From contig MEMM01000040.1 of the NCBI GenBank assembly GCA_001767925.1, positions 1-34,695 of the forward strand: a DNA stretch of 34,695 nucleotides. The letters are read 5' to 3'. This DNA is from Alphaproteobacteria bacterium RIFCSPHIGHO2_12_FULL_63_12. GTDB taxonomy: Bacteria; Pseudomonadota; Alphaproteobacteria; Caulobacterales; Parvularculaceae. The notes under the pieces were generated by a model. The model had not been told where the DNA came from, made no database searches, and saw only the letters and a list, made by a program, of their open reading frames with translations. How positions within the stretch are numbered: the first letter of the stretch is position 1; every line of letters begins with the position of its first letter. Shown in pieces: positions 21,436 through 27,665 of this stretch. Position numbers and translations under genes: made by a program.

Positions 21436-22233
21436 TCAGCCGCGGACGCGGGAGGGCGGCGCGCCATAGGCCCTCGCGAAACTGCGCGAGAAATGGCTGA
21501 GATTTTGGAAGCCGCAAGCGTAGCAGGTCTCGGTGACGCCGCGCCCCTCTCGCAACATCTCTTTAGCGGCGGCAAGGCGCGCTTTGAGGCGATATTGGTG
21601 CGGCGGCATGCCGACCAGCGCGCCGAAAAGCCGGGTGAAATGGAACATGCTCATGCCGACCGAGCGCGCAAGCGCCGACGCCGTCAGCTCCTTGTCGAGA
21701 TCGGCGCCGAGAAGCTGGCGCGCGTGATCGATGCGCTCGGCGTACCACGAAAATTTGCGCGCGCTGACGTTGATCGTGCGCGCGGGGTCCGGCGCCTCGC
21801 GAAATATTTCGCTGGCGCAATATTCAGCAAACATCGGCGTACCGGCGTCGACGGCGCGCCGCAGGCCCCATTGCAGATAGCGCAAGCGGTTGTTCGCGGC
21901 GAGGACAGGACGGCGGGCGCCGATCCATTTGTCGCAAGCGCCGAACGCGTCATCGGCGGGGGCGAGATATGTCAGCGACAAACAGGTGTCATTGAAACCG
22001 GCGCCGTCAAAACTGGCGCGAAAGCGCATGCCGGGGCGGCTCAGCATCACGTCGCCCGCGCCGACACGCCAGCCGTCATCACCGACGCAAAGATTGAACG
22101 CGCCGTCTTCGACAAAGCTCGCCATGAACGCCGAGGCGACTTCCTCATAGGGCTGGTCTTCATGCTCCGCCGGATGCGTGAAACGGTGCACGCTGATCTC
22201 GGCCGTGCGCAAAAGCGGAGTGATGCTTGCCAT
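21436..22233 (-). CDS. AraC-family transcriptional regulator
   Basis: The 265-residue product has an N-terminal cupin-like sensing domain and a C-terminal AraC double helix-turn-helix: TASALARSVGMSMFHFTRLFGALVGMPPHQYRLKARLAAAKEMLREGRGVTETCYACGFQNLSHFSRSFARAYGAPPSRVRG. The effector is unknown. A sigma70-like promoter precedes it, with -35 TCGACA (22264-22269), an 18-base spacer and -10 TATATT (22240-22245) only six bases from the ATG, so the mRNA may be leaderless. It is divergent from the secreted lipase-like gene, which could be its target, and lies upstream of the SnoaL-like gene. Confidence 0.93.
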   Translation of the reverse strand: MASITPLLRTAEISVHRFTHPAEHEDQPYEEVASAFMASFVEDGAFNLCVGDDGWRVGAGDVMLSRPGMRFRASFDGAGFNDTCLSLTYLAPADDAFGACDKWIGARRPVLAANNRLRYLQWGLRRAVDAGTPMFAEYCASEIFREAPDPARTINVSARKFSWYAERIDHARQLLGADLDKELTASALARSVGMSMFHFTRLFGALVGMPPHQYRLKARLAAAKEMLREGRGVTETCYACGFQNLSHFSRSFARAYGAPPSRVRG

Positions 22234-22569
22234 GACGGCAATATATCATTTCCGGCCGGCGGCTGTCGAACGGGGCGCCGGTTTCGCGCGATCTTGCGAC
22301 GAACGATGACGGTCGCGCTGCAAAACCTGACCCGCAGGCGAAAGAGGTCATGCTGCAAAGCGGCGAAAAATGTGATCGCGCTTTCATTGACCTCATCGGC
22401 GAAACCCTCGCACTCTTCCCGCGCCAGTGCAGACGGGGCTGTAAACTTCAGAGAAACCTCCAGGTTCTTGTTCGTATACGGGCGTAACTTCTCATTCCCC
22501 AGCATTGTTTGCGTTTGGGGCGGCGCGTTGACTGGCGACAGGGATAAAACGCAACAAGAAGGAGGCGTC
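22234..22569. other. Divergent intergenic region between araC-type and lipase-like genes
   Basis: This 336-base stretch holds the araC-type promoter at its left end (22240-22269). It also holds an imperfect hairpin with outer arms GAGGTCA (22344-22350) and TGACCTC (22388-22394) and inner arms AAAGC and GCTTT. A TTGACT at 22528 has no well-spaced -10. A GGAGG ribosome-binding site for the next gene ends the region. No open reading frame with coding character was found. Confidence 0.5.
22240..22269 (-). promoter_or_regulatory. Predicted promoter of the araC-type gene
   Basis: -35 TCGACA (22264-22269, five of six matches), an 18-base spacer and -10 TATATT (22240-22245). The likely transcription start is at or next to the A of the ATG at 22233. 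Confidence 0.5.
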
Positions 22570-23433
22570 ATGAAGCTCAGATTGAATGCGCTCATCGCCG
22601 CCGTCGCGTGTATTTTCGCGACGCCGGCGGCTGCGGCGAATACAGGCGTCGCGCTGGTCCACGGGACGAGCGCGCAGACCAATGCCTATAATGATTACTG
22701 GCGACCGGAATTTGTCGAGTCGGTGCGTCAGGGATTGCCCAATTCCGGCAATCTCCTCGTCGTCAATTGCGACTTCACCAAATATATGTGGGACAACGCG
22801 GCGGCCGGCTGTCTCGCGGGCCAGCTCTATAATTTCGTGACCTCGCGCGGCATCGACGATCTTGTCGTCATCACCCATTCGAACGGAAGCAATGTGATGC
22901 GATGGATCATGTCCAATCCGACATGGGACAGCCGCTATCCGACGATCATCAGCCGGATTCGCTGGGTCAACGGCGTCGCCGCGTCCAGCGCGGGAACGCC
23001 GCTCGCCGACGCCGTCATGCAGGGCAACATTTTCGAAGCTGCTGTCGGCTGGCTGCTCGGCTATCAAAATGACGGCGTGCGTCAGCAGCAGGTGTCGTGG
23101 ATGTCCTATTACAACGCCAACTGGCTGCTCGGCACCAGCGGCCGGCCGAGCCTGCCCAAAGGCTTCTGGAACGTCGTCGGGTCGGATGTCGACTCGGCGA
23201 TCTGGGATTCGGACAGCTATTGCGGCGGCTATTCGGAAAATGTCGGACTGGAAATCACGCAAAACTGGCTCGACAGCTGTTCAGACGGATTTCTCAACTG
23301 CACCTCGCAGAACGCGGCCGGGCGCTTGTGGTTCTATGACACGTCGCGCACGCGCGGCGGCGAGCCGCTGAGCCACAATCAGAGCCGGCGTCAATGCTTC
23401 AATCTCGATGTCATCTTGCGCGACGATCTGTGA
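22570..23433 (+). CDS. Secreted alpha/beta-hydrolase (lipase-like)
   Basis: The 287-residue product has a signal peptide (MKLRLNALIAAVACIFATPAAAA). An alpha/beta-hydrolase core follows, with the oxyanion-type segment VALVHGTSAQ and the nucleophile elbow ITHSNGSNV (probable Ser104; the first Gly of GxSxG is replaced by Thr). A candidate catalytic His is His269 in GGEPLSHNQ. Six cysteines (67, 81, 218, 237, 244, 276) could form disulfides, as in exported enzymes. The substrate is unknown. A strong GGAGG site precedes the ATG. The next gene starts 11 bases after the stop, so the pair is an operon. Confidence 0.8.
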   Translation: MKLRLNALIAAVACIFATPAAAANTGVALVHGTSAQTNAYNDYWRPEFVESVRQGLPNSGNLLVVNCDFTKYMWDNAAAGCLAGQLYNFVTSRGIDDLVVITHSNGSNVMRWIMSNPTWDSRYPTIISRIRWVNGVAASSAGTPLADAVMQGNIFEAAVGWLLGYQNDGVRQQQVSWMSYYNANWLLGTSGRPSLPKGFWNVVGSDVDSAIWDSDSYCGGYSENVGLEITQNWLDSCSDGFLNCTSQNAAGRLWFYDTSRTRGGEPLSHNQSRRQCFNLDVILRDDL

Positions 23434-23444
23434 GGAGAAGAGAA

Positions 23445-24629
23445 ATGAAAAAAACCATCAGAAAAACCCTCCTCGGCGCGCTTGCTTTCGCCGCGGTCTC
23501 GCCCGCCGCCGCCCAGCAGGCGCCGCTCGCCAATACCGAACAGGGCGCCGTCGGATTCACGCAGGTTCTGGCGCCCGGTTCGACGTTCGATCTCGGCGTC
23601 GCCCCGGCAAGCGTCGCCAGCCGAAGCTATCATGAGCGCGTCTCGGCCGCCGATCTTGAACGCGGGGTCGATATCGTCACGCAGGCGAACGGCGCCGTCG
23701 TCCGGCTGACGCCGGTCAAAGGCTCCGCCGCGGCGAACGCCGCGCCCGGAAAACTTCTCGTCGCCGATCTCGAAATCAGCCGCGGCGGCGCCAATCCGGT
23801 CGCGGTCGAGCGCTCCGGCGCGCTGGTCGCCGATCAGGACGAGCTCAAGCGAAGCAATCCGGAACTCTTTGAAGACACGCTTGCGTTCCGCCTCGCCGAC
23901 ACGTTGGGGCAGGGGCGCTTCCGGCTTAAAGCCGCGCGCAAGATCGCCGGCGGCGAAGACTACATGATCCAGGTCTTCGACAAGGGAAGCGATATCGATC
24001 TCGTTCTCGATGCGCCGCGCCAGCATTATTTCGCCAATGGCTTGCTGGCGGTCAAAGCCTCGCTCCCGCAACGTGGCTTGCAGCGCGGCGCGGAGATTTC
24101 CGCGGCGCTGCTGGGGCCTGGCGGTCAACGGATCGATCTTCGCGCAGCGGTCAACGGGTCGGCGATCGACATCAATGGCGGCTTGCCGGCCAGCCTTCGC
24201 GCAGCGCCCGGCGAGCTCTGGCGCGTCGCCGTCAGTTACCGCGACAAGGCCGGCGCGGCGCCGCTCTACCGTGACGCCGAACTTGCGCTGGCGGTCGGCG
24301 AGCGAACCGCGAGCATCAAGGGGTCGACCGCGGCCAAAGGCGGCGTCAATGTCGCCGTCGATGTCGCCGCCGCCGGACGATACGAAGCCCGCGCCTATGT
24401 CTACGCGAAGAACGCGGCTTCGGCATGGGAGCCGGCGGCGCTCCTCTACGCGGCGGACTGGCTGGAGCCGGGCGCGCGCACGCTCGCGCTTTCGGCGGAT
24501 GTCGCAGCGCTCGAACAGGCGGGGTATCAGCCGCCCTTCAAGCTGCGCCAGCTTCAGCTCCTCGACCAGAGCCGGCTGATGGTCCTCGACACCAGGACGT
24601 CGGACGCGCTGCCGCAATTCGAGCGGTAA
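23445..24629 (+). CDS. Secreted protein of unknown function, partner of the lipase-like hydrolase
   Basis: The 394-residue product begins with a signal peptide (MKKTIRKTLLGALAFAAVSPAAAQQ). The mature region shows no catalytic motif. It is rich in beta-type segments, and the later part (about 190-370: LLAVKASLPQRGLQRGAEISAALLGPGG, VNVAVDVAAAGRYEARAYVYAKN) resembles Ig-like or DUF4785-type folds. That family call is tentative. It lies 11 bases after the hydrolase gene behind a GAGGAGA ribosome-binding site, so the two are expressed together. A role as chaperone, stabiliser or binding partner of the hydrolase is inference. Confidence 0.75.
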   Translation: MKKTIRKTLLGALAFAAVSPAAAQQAPLANTEQGAVGFTQVLAPGSTFDLGVAPASVASRSYHERVSAADLERGVDIVTQANGAVVRLTPVKGSAAANAAPGKLLVADLEISRGGANPVAVERSGALVADQDELKRSNPELFEDTLAFRLADTLGQGRFRLKAARKIAGGEDYMIQVFDKGSDIDLVLDAPRQHYFANGLLAVKASLPQRGLQRGAEISAALLGPGGQRIDLRAAVNGSAIDINGGLPASLRAAPGELWRVAVSYRDKAGAAPLYRDAELALAVGERTASIKGSTAAKGGVNVAVDVAAAGRYEARAYVYAKNAASAWEPAALLYAADWLEPGARTLALSADVAALEQAGYQPPFKLRQLQLLDQSRLMVLDTRTSDALPQFER

Positions 24630-24783: not shown

Positions 24784-25176
24784 ATGGCCAATCACGAACT
24801 CGACTATCAAGGCGGCAGCGGCCGCAGCGGCGGCATGGCGTGGCTTTTCATGCCGATCGTGCTCATTCTTTTTCTCGGCGCCGCGTTGTCGGTGGCCGCG
24901 TATAATTTTTCCGAGACCGATCTGTCGGTCGCCGAATCGATCGCGGCCGGGTTCGGCGGACTGGCCGGCATCATCCTTGGCCTCATCGGCGCCGCGATCG
25001 GCATCGTGGTCGGCCTGATCGGCGCGCTGATCGGCCTTGTCGCCGCCGGCGGCGCGGTGGCGATGACCTTGTTCATCGTCGGCTCGCCGATCATCGCGCT
25101 GATTTTGTTGGGTCTGCTGTGGCGGCGGTCGAAACAGGTTCCATGTCCCGACCCCGGCGCGCATCCGGCGGCGTAG
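24784..25176 (+). CDS. Small glycine-rich membrane protein, function unknown
   Basis: The 130-residue product has a hydrophilic N-terminus and a transmembrane segment at about 18-40. Next comes a very long hydrophobic stretch, about 55-112, with repeated GLIGA/GIIxG patterns reminiscent of glycine-zipper helices, and a basic end (WRRSK). No known family was recognised. An AAGGGG ribosome-binding site precedes the ATG. It is followed by a strong hairpin terminator. Confidence 0.72.
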   Translation: MANHELDYQGGSGRSGGMAWLFMPIVLILFLGAALSVAAYNFSETDLSVAESIAAGFGGLAGIILGLIGAAIGIVVGLIGALIGLVAAGGAVAMTLFIVGSPIIALILLGLLWRRSKQVPCPDPGAHPAA

Positions 25177-25229: not shown

Positions 25230-27410
25230 CTACATCCGGAACGTATGTCCGAGGCGCAGCGCCAGACTTGTTCCCTGCGCCCGGAAGCTCTCGGGGAAGC
25301 GCTCCTCCTCGATCAGCGCCGTATGGCCGAGCGAGATGAAGATCTCCCGCTCCGGCGTCGGCTCCCAGCTGAAGCGCGTCAGCAAAGAGAAATTTTCCGA
25401 GATGTTGTCGTATTGCATATCGGTGCGGATGAACATGCGCGAGGTGACGGCGACCGTCGCGCCGATGACGCCGACATGAATGTCGAGATCTCCAGTCGGC
25501 AAATTGAAGCGTACGAGGTCGTAATCCGCTTCGATGTTAAAATGAGCGCTCGGGCGCCAGGTCAGGCCGCCGCCGAAATTGCGGAAGTCGCCGCCGTAAA
25601 TGCCGCCCCAACGGATCTTGCCGCGCAACGCCAGATCGCGCGCGCCGGACGACTCAGCCGACAGATTATATCGCGAGAACCGGTATTCGCCGACCGGCAC
25701 CGGCAGGCGCCCCGCGATATCGAATTGGTCGCGGATGTCGAGAAATCCTCGGAAGAATTCCAGCTCCGCCGCCCCGCCAAGGCGCGTCTCGACGCGGGTG
25801 AAGACGCCAAGTTCGCGGTCGAGGAGCTCGTCGTCGAGATCGGTGACGGCGAGACCGAAGGCGCCGACCATAAAGACTCGCACCGGGCCGTCTTCCGGCC
25901 GGAACAGCCGGAAGAGATTGGCGTGGTACTGACGAATGCCGGTGCGGTTCGAGAAGCCGAGCCGCGGACGATAGTTCTCGCCGATATTGTAGAACTCGGC
26001 GTTCCATTCCCATTTGAGGCCGCGATACGAGCCGGCTGCGGCGGCGTAATGATCGCCGACAGAATTGACGCCGTCATCGTCAATCGTCCGCACATAAGTG
26101 AAGTCGCCATACAGCGTTCCGGGAAATCCGGTCGAATTCTTGTACTGAAAGTCGACGCCGGCGAGCGTGTTGTCGAATTGCCCGGTCGGATCGCCATGGG
26201 TGAAGATGACGCCGGCTTTCGATTCGCTTAGCACTTCGAATGAGGCGCGCGCCGCGCCGAGATACTGGCCGTCGTAAACGGAATCGTCGCCGGTTCTGAC
26301 CGCGAGGACGCCGAGATTGGCGGGGCCGAGCTTGCCGCTCACCTTGGCGCCGGCGATGAGATCGACGGGCCGACCCTCGACGATGCCGATATTGCGTGAA
26401 AAGAACGGCAGGCCGTTGATGTTTTGCTGATAGACGCGGCCGCCGAATTCGAAGGACTGCACGTCCTGCAGGAAGAAGTCGCGCGTCTCAGGGAAGAAGA
26501 GATCGAACCGCCCGGTATTCACCTGGCGATCGTCGAGCGGCGCATCGGCGAAACTCGTATTGAGCGTCAGCGACCCGGTGAGGCTCGGGGTGATCTTGTA
26601 AAATATATTGGCGCTCGGATCGAAGGTGAAATCCGTGTCGCCGGTCTCCCAGTCGTAAGATGTCGCGCCGGTTGCGAAAAGCTGCGCCTCAAGCCCGATG
26701 CCGGACGTAACGCCTTCGATTCCCGACAGCCGTCCGGGGTTGGTGATATCGATGCGGTCGCGCGTGCGGTCGATGTTCGACCAGCGAATTTCCTCATTGG
26801 TGCGCCGAATGGTGCGCAGCAACTGCATCCCCCATTCGGTCAGCGAAGAATCGATCGAGATCGACTGAAACGGGATGGCGAATTCGGCGATCCATCCGTC
26901 CTCGACGATGCGCGCATCGACATCCCATAGGGCGTTCCACTCGTTCTTGATCGAGGAATTGTTTTCAATCAGCGCGTCGACCTTCGCGCCATTGGCGTTG
27001 GTCGCGAAAAAATAGCCGTCGCGCTTGGTGTCGAACGGATCGAGCATGACGCGGATCGCGTCTTCGTCGCGCAAGAGACCGTCGCGTTCGAGGATAGCGT
27101 GACGGATTTTATCGGGCTCGGTGTCGTAAAGATAAAACCCGACATAGAGCTTGCGCTCGTCATACATGATATAGGCGCGCGTCTTTTGCGTCGGCGCCCC
27201 GCCCTCGACCGGCTCGACCTGATAGAATTCTTCAACGACCGCCGCCTTCGCCCAGGCGGGATCGGAAAGATCGCCGTCGATTTTCGGCGCTTCATCTTTC
27301 GAGATTTTGACGGCGCCGATTTTCGGCGCATAGGTCGCAAAATCGGCGACGTCGGCTGCGTTCGCTGGCGCGGCCGCGATAGTCATCAACGCGATAACTG
27401 TACGTATCAT
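25230..27410 (-). CDS. DUF5916 / CBM9-like outer-membrane protein
   Basis: The 726-residue product has a signal peptide (MIRTVIALMTIAAAPANAA). A carbohydrate-binding-family-9-like domain follows (APKIDGDLSDPAWAKAA, YIMYDERKLYVGFYLYD, VMLDPFDTKRDGYFFATN, WNALWDVDARIVEDGWIAEFAIPF). The rest is a long beta-rich region with many alternating hydrophobic strands, typical of a barrel, ending LRLGHTFRM. DUF5916 proteins are usually annotated as hydrolases or outer-membrane proteins; the substrate is not known. The start at 27410 is chosen to give a clean signal peptide; the frame opens further upstream to 27458. The gene is divergent from the hybrid kinase. Confidence 0.87.
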   Translation of the reverse strand: MIRTVIALMTIAAAPANAADVADFATYAPKIGAVKISKDEAPKIDGDLSDPAWAKAAVVEEFYQVEPVEGGAPTQKTRAYIMYDERKLYVGFYLYDTEPDKIRHAILERDGLLRDEDAIRVMLDPFDTKRDGYFFATNANGAKVDALIENNSSIKNEWNALWDVDARIVEDGWIAEFAIPFQSISIDSSLTEWGMQLLRTIRRTNEEIRWSNIDRTRDRIDITNPGRLSGIEGVTSGIGLEAQLFATGATSYDWETGDTDFTFDPSANIFYKITPSLTGSLTLNTSFADAPLDDRQVNTGRFDLFFPETRDFFLQDVQSFEFGGRVYQQNINGLPFFSRNIGIVEGRPVDLIAGAKVSGKLGPANLGVLAVRTGDDSVYDGQYLGAARASFEVLSESKAGVIFTHGDPTGQFDNTLAGVDFQYKNSTGFPGTLYGDFTYVRTIDDDGVNSVGDHYAAAAGSYRGLKWEWNAEFYNIGENYRPRLGFSNRTGIRQYHANLFRLFRPEDGPVRVFMVGAFGLAVTDLDDELLDRELGVFTRVETRLGGAAELEFFRGFLDIRDQFDIAGRLPVPVGEYRFSRYNLSAESSGARDLALRGKIRWGGIYGGDFRNFGGGLTWRPSAHFNIEADYDLVRFNLPTGDLDIHVGVIGATVAVTSRMFIRTDMQYDNISENFSLLTRFSWEPTPEREIFISLGHTALIEEERFPESFRAQGTSLALRLGHTFRM

Positions 27411-27665
27411 GATCGAATGCTGTACGCCCAAATTGTTACAAAACAGGGTGCGCGGCAACGCCGGGCGCCGCCCGCGAAACTCCCTGGCCGTTTATCGATT
27501 GAGCCCCTCCAGAACCGGAACCCTAGCACAATTCCGGCCAATTAGATACCGGTTGGTCGCCCATTGCGCCCGTTTCGGCGCACCGCCCGCCGATTTCGTC
27601 AATGCGTGGTTAACGAAGTCGCCCTAGTTTTTCGGCGGGAGAATAGCGGGAAACGGGCGCTGGCG

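What the first reader, a model, noticed from the sequence alone, without database searches (positions are those of the whole stretch)
22570..24629. Uncharacterised secreted hydrolase plus secreted partner, next to an AraC regulator
A disulfide-rich lipase-like enzyme with a variant nucleophile elbow (THSNG instead of GxSxG) is 11 bases before a secreted beta-rich protein of unknown function. The divergent AraC gene could control them. Co-secretion of an enzyme and a non-catalytic partner suggests a chaperone or substrate-binding role.
Basis: partly seen in the sequence, partly recalled or inferred. Interest (0 to 1): 0.55.

Follow-up and report, generated by a model that had tools for sequence, protein, structure and literature searches.

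The report
Lipase-like enzyme with linked exported partner
Two neighbouring genes make an exported lipase-like enzyme and a second exported protein of unknown job, found side by side in nearly every genome examined that has either; the second is a relative of NttD, a Legionella secreted protein of unknown function, so the pairing hints at what NttD may do.

Summary
Window 22570-23433 (+) encodes a 287-aa alpha/beta hydrolase; 11 bases on, 23445-24629 (+) encodes a 394-aa DUF4785 protein. In two genome samples the two families occur in the same genomes (5 of 369; 8 of 398). In 89 of 90 hydrolase loci the partner follows on the same strand; in the other, L026, the contig ends. The partner's family is that of Legionella NttD (Lpg0956, PDB 4KH9), a type II-secreted protein of unknown activity, and the hydrolase family precedes it in two Legionella-like genomes. 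A confident model (pLDDT 93.3) is closest to bacterial lipases, some of which need a chaperone from the neighbouring gene. I propose a lipase-like enzyme with a dedicated, co-exported, non-catalytic partner that folds, escorts or activates it, unlike the known foldase Lif. This is inferred from genomes; no activity or complex is shown, and an nttD mutant kept normal bulk lipase activity. The AraC gene predates the pair at this site: two congeners have it there without the pair. AraC control is not supported.

The parts
22570..23433 (+). exported lipase-like alpha/beta hydrolase (P0003, 287 aa); proposed triad Ser104, Asp239, His269; proposed oxyanion His31-Gly32
   Evidence: these residues invariant in 89 of 89 aligned sequences; AlphaFold pLDDT 93.3; nearest folds bacterial lipases
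23445..24629 (+). DUF4785 partner protein (P0001, 394 aa), family of Legionella NttD / PDB 4KH9
   Evidence: PF16024 1.3e-26 and PF20943 2.6e-21; 4kh9 phmmer 3.4e-19
22240..24628 (+). approximate extent of the segment (pair plus its own upstream region) absent between the same neighbours in two congeners
   Evidence: left edge uncertain within about 80 bases, homology resumes at 24628 (L124) or 24655 (L123)
21436..22233 (-). AraC-type regulator, older resident of the site; not shown to control the pair
24784..25176 (+). gene on the far side of the segment (130 aa, no Pfam match); neighbour of araC in two congeners

Best explanation
A two-gene export module. Gene 1 is a cysteine-rich serine hydrolase with the fold of bacterial true lipases, sent through Sec and then most likely the type II secretion system. 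Gene 2 is its dedicated non-catalytic partner: probably co-transcribed, exported to the same compartment, and binding the enzyme to fold it, escort it through secretion, or activate it at its lipid substrate. It plays the role that the helical foldase Lif plays for LipA-type lipases, but is a different, three-domain beta protein that can leave the cell (NttD in Legionella) or perhaps stay as an outer-membrane lipoprotein (L008, L009). Shown here: gene pairing and order, predicted fold, conserved triad candidates, and that the pair as a whole is absent from the same site in congeners. Inferred: enzyme activity, disulfides, physical complex, secretion route in this organism, and the partner's mode of action.
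For: Same genomes hold both families: 5 of 369 and 5 of 369, the same five; 8 of 398 and 8 of 398, the same eight, own included. The partner is directly downstream in 89 of 90 loci, the other being a contig end; with starts chosen by a script, 85 of 89 lie -4 to +17 bases from the enzyme's stop, and enzyme comes first in 89 of 89. With ORFs overlapping the pair removed, no other gene family within 5 kb reaches more than 26 of 71 loci. Window enzyme and partner group with the same taxa in both trees, and both are missing from two congeners at the same site. Fold: Foldseek best 1ys1, E 4.4e-11; VIA Z 23.9, rmsd 2.5 over 233 residues, to the lipase of a LipA:LipB complex. Lopsided divergence as in lipase/Lif: median identity 70% for enzyme and 30% for partner (88 gene pairs) against 49% and 20.5% for lipase and Lif (7 gene pairs). 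Own genome has two GspD genes above the cut-off. In Legionella NttD is type II-secreted and the second gene of a four-gene operon (PMC5904407 passages), and Lpg0957 is a supernatant protein called a putative lipase (PMC6617341 passages).
Against: An nttD mutant of Legionella kept normal bulk lipase, phosphatase and protease activity in supernatants (PMC5904407 passages), so the partner is not needed for the main lipase activity measured there; whether the paired enzyme contributes to that assay is unknown. The same review that calls Lpg0957 a putative lipase also lists it among effectors without similarity to known enzymes, and its type II dependence was not examined (PMC6617341 passages). NttD leaves the cell, whereas Lif stays membrane-anchored. 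Several of the nearest folds are lipases I recall as foldase-independent (Proteus lipase, LipC12), so the fold does not by itself imply a chaperone. The sequence link to Lif-linked lipases is weak (hhalign probability 18%, E 0.0013). Lopsided divergence could arise in any enzyme/adaptor pair, and the Lif comparison looked only downstream of each lipase.
Confidence: 0.5

Rival explanations
1. The partner is a substrate- or surface-binding subunit (colipase-like): both proteins are secreted, form a complex outside the cell, and the partner brings the enzyme to a lipid, a glycolipid or a host surface.
For: NttD is found in supernatants, is mainly beta-strand with three domains, and its C-terminal domain was likened to glycosidases though no glycosidase activity was seen (PMC5904407 passages). 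The partner diverges fast while the enzyme stays nearly fixed, as expected if it tracks varying surfaces. Two partners have clear lipoprotein-like N-termini (L008, L009).
Against: No binding data of any kind; tight linkage with the enzyme first fits folding or escort equally well.
Confidence: 0.3
2. The partner protects the producer: a periplasmic inhibitor or immunity protein against a membrane-damaging lipase.
For: Lipase-like gene followed directly by an exported-looking protein; L008 and L009 partners look like lipoproteins, a known style of immunity protein (recalled).
Against: The enzyme has its own signal peptide and is strongly conserved (median 70%), not polymorphic; the Legionella partner is secreted away from the cell and an nttD mutant grew normally in broth.
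Confidence: 0.1
3. The two proteins act separately on the same target and are linked only for joint regulation.
For: The passages seen treat NttD as a stand-alone secreted factor.
Against: No solo copy of either family in the 369 and the 398 genomes searched for both; joint regulation alone rarely gives such strict linkage across phyla (inference).
Confidence: 0.1

Closest known systems
LipA-Lif (LipA-LipH/LipB) lipase-foldase operons, lipase subfamilies I.1/I.2
   Same: Lipase fold (ranks 1-18, Z 22.3-23.9, are lipases or a cholesterol esterase, several of this kind); partner gene close behind the enzyme gene in the 7 pairs measured here (downstream only; in Acinetobacter lipB is upstream, PMC4713064 passages); conserved enzyme and fast partner; type II secretion in the literature (PMC13381987 passages).
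   Different: Partner is DUF4785, a beta protein, not Lif (PF03280); elbow THSNG, not GHSxG. G210 and G779 hold both systems, so one does not simply replace the other.
NttD (Lpg0956, PDB 4KH9) and Lpg0957 of Legionella pneumophila
   Same: NttD is of the same family as the window partner (4kh9 E 3.4e-19); in two Legionella-like genomes the hydrolase gene overlaps the start of the DUF4785 gene by 4 bases.
   Different: In the passages seen NttD is handled alone and Lpg0957 is only listed; the window organism is of another class (kinship labels). That Lpg0957 belongs to the hydrolase family is inferred from position and label; its sequence was not fetched.
CpaA-CpaB of Acinetobacter (type II effector with membrane chaperone)
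   Same: Effector gene followed by a partner gene unrelated to Lif (PMC4713064 passages).
   Different: CpaA is a protease; CpaB is predicted membrane-anchored.
Candida antarctica lipase B and other Lipase B entries
   Same: Weak profile match through the elbow, T-x-S-x-G, and the following A-P...G-T-x-L-A stretch (E 1.1-1.6).
   Different: Not significant by sequence; no partner protein that I know of (recalled).

Membership tests
DUF4785 (PF16024/PF20943) | Scores over the curated Pfam cut-offs | tested here: met
   93.9 bits against 24.2; 76.1 against 24.5
DUF7379 (PF24096) | Score over the curated cut-off | tested here: not met
   window enzyme 22.5 bits against 33; all 89 members of A2 match at E up to 1, best E 1.7e-7
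Bacterial lipase subfamily I.1/I.2 | True-lipase alpha/beta hydrolase fold | tested here: met
   predicted model: Foldseek E 4.4e-11, VIA Z up to 23.9
Bacterial lipase subfamily I.1/I.2 | GHSxG elbow as in the nine Lif-linked lipases aligned here | tested here: not met
   THS in 89 of 89; GHS in 9 of 9
Bacterial lipase subfamily I.1/I.2 | Asp in an N-D-G stretch shortly before a Cys-Ser, then the catalytic His | tested here: inconclusive
   Window family has D239-G240...C244-x-S246 and His269, all invariant; the lipases have N-D-G-L-V..C-S and N-H. Compared by eye; the hhalign alignment stops before this region
Bacterial lipase subfamily I.1/I.2 | Significant sequence homology | tested here: inconclusive
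   hhalign probability 18%, E 0.0013 over 155 columns
Lipase-specific foldase (PF03280) | Partner matches the Lif model | tested here: not met
   P0001 matches only the two DUF4785 models in Pfam up to E 0.1. PF03280 found nothing in the own genome, 84.67% complete, and rang in no control genome there; it rang in 12 of 369 others, 10 over the cut-off
Type II secretion chaperone as defined in PMC4713064 | Encoded next to the effector | tested here: inconclusive
   next to the hydrolase: 11-base gap, 89 of 90 loci; that the hydrolase is a type II effector is not shown here
Type II secretion chaperone as defined in PMC4713064 | N-terminal transmembrane anchor | tested here: inconclusive
   77 of 88 partners look signal-peptide-like, but my rule misread 5 of 7 Lifs; NttD is found in supernatants, which speaks against an anchor
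Type II secretion chaperone as defined in PMC4713064 | Needed for secretion of the effector | not testable with these tools
   bench experiment

The most novel reading that the evidence does not exclude
DUF4785/NttD proteins are a new, Lif-unrelated class of dedicated lipase partner, a beta-rich chaperone or colipase that leaves the cell with its enzyme, and the amoeba phenotype reported for NttD is really the phenotype of the lipase-partner complex.
Probability: 0.35. Interest if true: 0.75.

Novelty: new variant of a known kind. Interest (0 to 1): 0.6.

Why it matters
NttD has a crystal structure and an infection phenotype but no known activity (PMC5904407 and PMC6617341 passages). A strict genomic tie to one enzyme family in the genomes searched gives a direct hypothesis for what it does, and marine or soil homologues in which to test it. 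If the partner is a chaperone or colipase, it would be a second solution to the lipase-foldase problem, with use in making lipases that do not fold alone.

Tried and rejected
AraC control: rejected as a conserved feature. Foreign composition as a sign of transfer: GC3 of the pair (0.771, 0.797) is like that of its neighbours (0.764-0.846), so composition gives no sign of it; the case rests on absence of the hydrolase in 60 of 60 relatives searched, the empty site and the trees.

The first AlphaFold run with 8 sequences was poor (pLDDT 53.5) and was dropped; the second, 89 sequences, was used. Phages and viral contigs: no relative. Plasmids: 1 record, a 919-kb Pseudoalteromonas replicon. PDB by sequence for the enzyme: three chance-level hits with the single protein (E 0.76-0.89) and 15 with the profile, best E 0.078. 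NCBIfam gave nothing for the enzyme.

A rule of thumb for signal peptide, lipoprotein or anchor failed its control: it misread 5 of 7 Lifs and called the window enzyme lipoprotein-like. It flagged 8 of 88 partners as lipoproteins, and a simpler pattern 4 of 91 pieces; by eye only L008 and L009 have the Cys at the end of the hydrophobic stretch, so I quote only those two. Lipases were found by motif at 9 of the 17 PF03280 loci; two of the nine, L130 and L138, are neighbours on one contig. Hydrolase loci beyond the best 80 of 325 were not fetched, so solo copies among more distant relatives are not excluded. The first neighbour count mixed in frames that overlap the pair and was redone.

Papers, all in one open-access library: DUF4785 (2 papers), NttD or lpg0957 (94, of which 20 listed and most unrelated), lpg0957 (1), foldase terms (14, 10 listed), 4KH9 (3), a six-term search (3). 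In what I saw, none links NttD's function to the neighbouring lipase. I saw passages of PMC6617341, PMC5904407, PMC7325957, PMC12394494, PMC13381987 and PMC4713064, not whole texts or supplements, so the absence is limited to that.

Full report
What is there. Two co-directional genes, 22570-23433 and 23445-24629 on the plus strand, 11 bases apart, both with signal-peptide-like starts by eye. The first is a 287-aa hydrolase; the second, 394 aa, is a DUF4785 protein (PF16024 1.3e-26, PF20943 2.6e-21) whose one significant PDB relative is 4KH9 (3.4e-19), the Legionella protein NttD. A divergent AraC-type gene lies at 21436-22233.

The pair is a unit. PF16024 was found in 8 of 398 genomes of the phylum sample, own included, and the hydrolase profile in 8 of 398, the same eight handles. 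With no regard for relatedness, such a match of two sets of five would arise by chance about once in 5e10; relatedness makes that number too strong. A scan of named genomes found 325 relatives, of which the best 80 were fetched. Of 90 hydrolase loci examined (the 80 plus 10 from the samples; the window's own loci, duplicate loci L090-L094 and GspD loci left out beforehand), 89 have the partner on the same strand downstream; the ninetieth, L026, ends under 200 bases after the enzyme. L002 and L077 are one genome, so the distinct figure is 88 of 89; further overlaps between the unnamed and named sets cannot be excluded. With starts chosen by a script, 85 of 89 partners begin -4 to +17 bases from the enzyme's stop; in L032, L037, L061 and L074 the script chose a later start (115-241 bases), and in L052 the partner is broken into three frames, its first piece starting at +9. 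With ORFs that overlap the pair removed, no other gene family within 5 kb reached more than 26 of the 71 loci of 7 kb or more. Record titles are mostly Lysobacterales and other Gammaproteobacteria (Kangiella, Pleionea, Wenzhouxiangella and others), with several Acidobacteria assemblies.

The enzyme. In 89 aligned sequences, window included, His31, Gly32, Thr102, His103, Ser104, Asp239, Asp257 and His269 never vary, nor do Cys67, 218, 237, 244 and 276; Cys81 is missing in two (L074, L078). I take Ser104, Asp239 and His269 as the triad; this is from conservation and motif, as no atomic coordinates could be inspected. The AlphaFold model from these sequences has pLDDT 93.3 and pTM 0.89. Foldseek puts Burkholderia and Pseudomonas lipases first (E 4.4e-11 and 4.6e-11). 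VIA-align, a second look at Foldseek's own list, gives Z 23.9, rmsd 2.5, 233 residues to chain 9g8u_A of the Acinetobacter LipA:LipB complex; ranks 1 to 18, down to Z 22.3, are lipases or a cholesterol esterase. The sequence link is weak: hhalign against nine Lif-linked lipases, found through PF03280, gave probability 18% and E 0.0013. A Thr-x-Ser-x-Gly elbow has a weakly matching precedent in Lipase B (E 1.1).

The partner. In Legionella, NttD is absent from supernatants of a type II mutant, is encoded by the second gene of a four-gene operon, is a three-domain, mainly beta-strand protein in monomer-dimer equilibrium, and showed no glycosidase activity; its loss cut yields from Acanthamoeba about 30-fold, while broth growth and bulk lipase, phosphatase and protease activity stayed normal (PMC5904407, passages). 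A review calls Lpg0957 a secreted putative lipase in one place and lists it among effectors without likeness to known enzymes in another, its type II dependence untested; the passages seen do not link it to NttD (PMC6617341). In both the hydrolase gene comes first and overlaps the DUF4785 gene by 4 bases.

Evolution. Across 88 gene pairs (window plus 87 loci; L026, L052 and L077 left out) median identity is 70% for the enzyme and 30% for the partner, and the two correlate at 0.66 (comparisons are not independent). For seven lipase-Lif pairs the medians are 49% and 20.5% (L128 gave no Lif, and only the downstream side was searched). FastTree places the window's enzyme in a clade of 11 (support 0.93) and its partner in a clade of 8 (support 0.975); all eight of the latter are in the former, though the closest grouping in the enzyme tree has support 0.0. 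The hydrolase was not found in 60 of 60 relatives. In G007 and G002 the AraC gene and the gene equivalent to 24784-25176 are 223 and 214 bases apart; in the window they are 2,550 apart with the pair between. G008 also has the AraC gene, but the far neighbour was not found in the 15 kb read. So the pair is most simply a joint arrival beside an older AraC gene. Base composition gives no extra sign of this.

Mechanism. Lif-type foldases are encoded beside their lipases, fold them in the periplasm and are needed for type II secretion (PMC13381987 passages; PMC4713064 passages). The window pair has the same plan with a different partner. The own genome has two GspD genes over the cut-off. I therefore favour a partner that folds, escorts or activates the enzyme. 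The normal bulk lipase activity of the nttD mutant, the secretion of NttD itself and the foldase-independence of some of the nearest-fold lipases (recalled) keep this at about even odds; a colipase or targeting subunit is the main rival. Genomes G210 and G779 hold both Lif and this pair, so the two systems can coexist.

Verdict. A real and widespread two-gene module, not described as such in what searches showed me. It gives an orphan secreted protein a likely partner.

Noticed in passing
L008 1312-2643, L009 1315-2583: The DUF4785 partner has a clear lipobox (LTAC, VSAC) in these two genomes of family f77, suggesting an outer-membrane lipoprotein form.
   Followed up: partly
window 22888-22890 (residue 107): The window enzyme has Ser at position 107, where 86 of 89 aligned sequences have Gly and the two Legionella-like ones have Ala.
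   Followed up: no
window 25230-27458, minus strand: Protein with CBM9-like and DUF5916 matches, 81% and 83% identical in two congeners at the same site.
   Followed up: no
G000:C12:6198-7970 and G000:C153:7050-8804: Two separate GspD-type secretins over the cut-off in this genome.
   Followed up: no
L049: A contig titled as Rhizobium carries a pair very like those of Arenimonas (3-base gap; similar partner N-terminus); possibly a binning error.
   Followed up: no
NZ_CP099918.1 130128-130904: The hydrolase also sits on a 919-kb Pseudoalteromonas replicon filed as a plasmid.
   Followed up: no
L074, L078: Two sequences from Acidobacteria and Holophagae assemblies lack Cys81, so a Cys67-Cys81 bond, if there is one, is not universal.
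   Followed up: no
PMC12394494: A DUF4785 gene of Stenotrophomonas maltophilia is in a table of genes with lowered expression in eravacycline-resistant strains (one passage).
   Followed up: no
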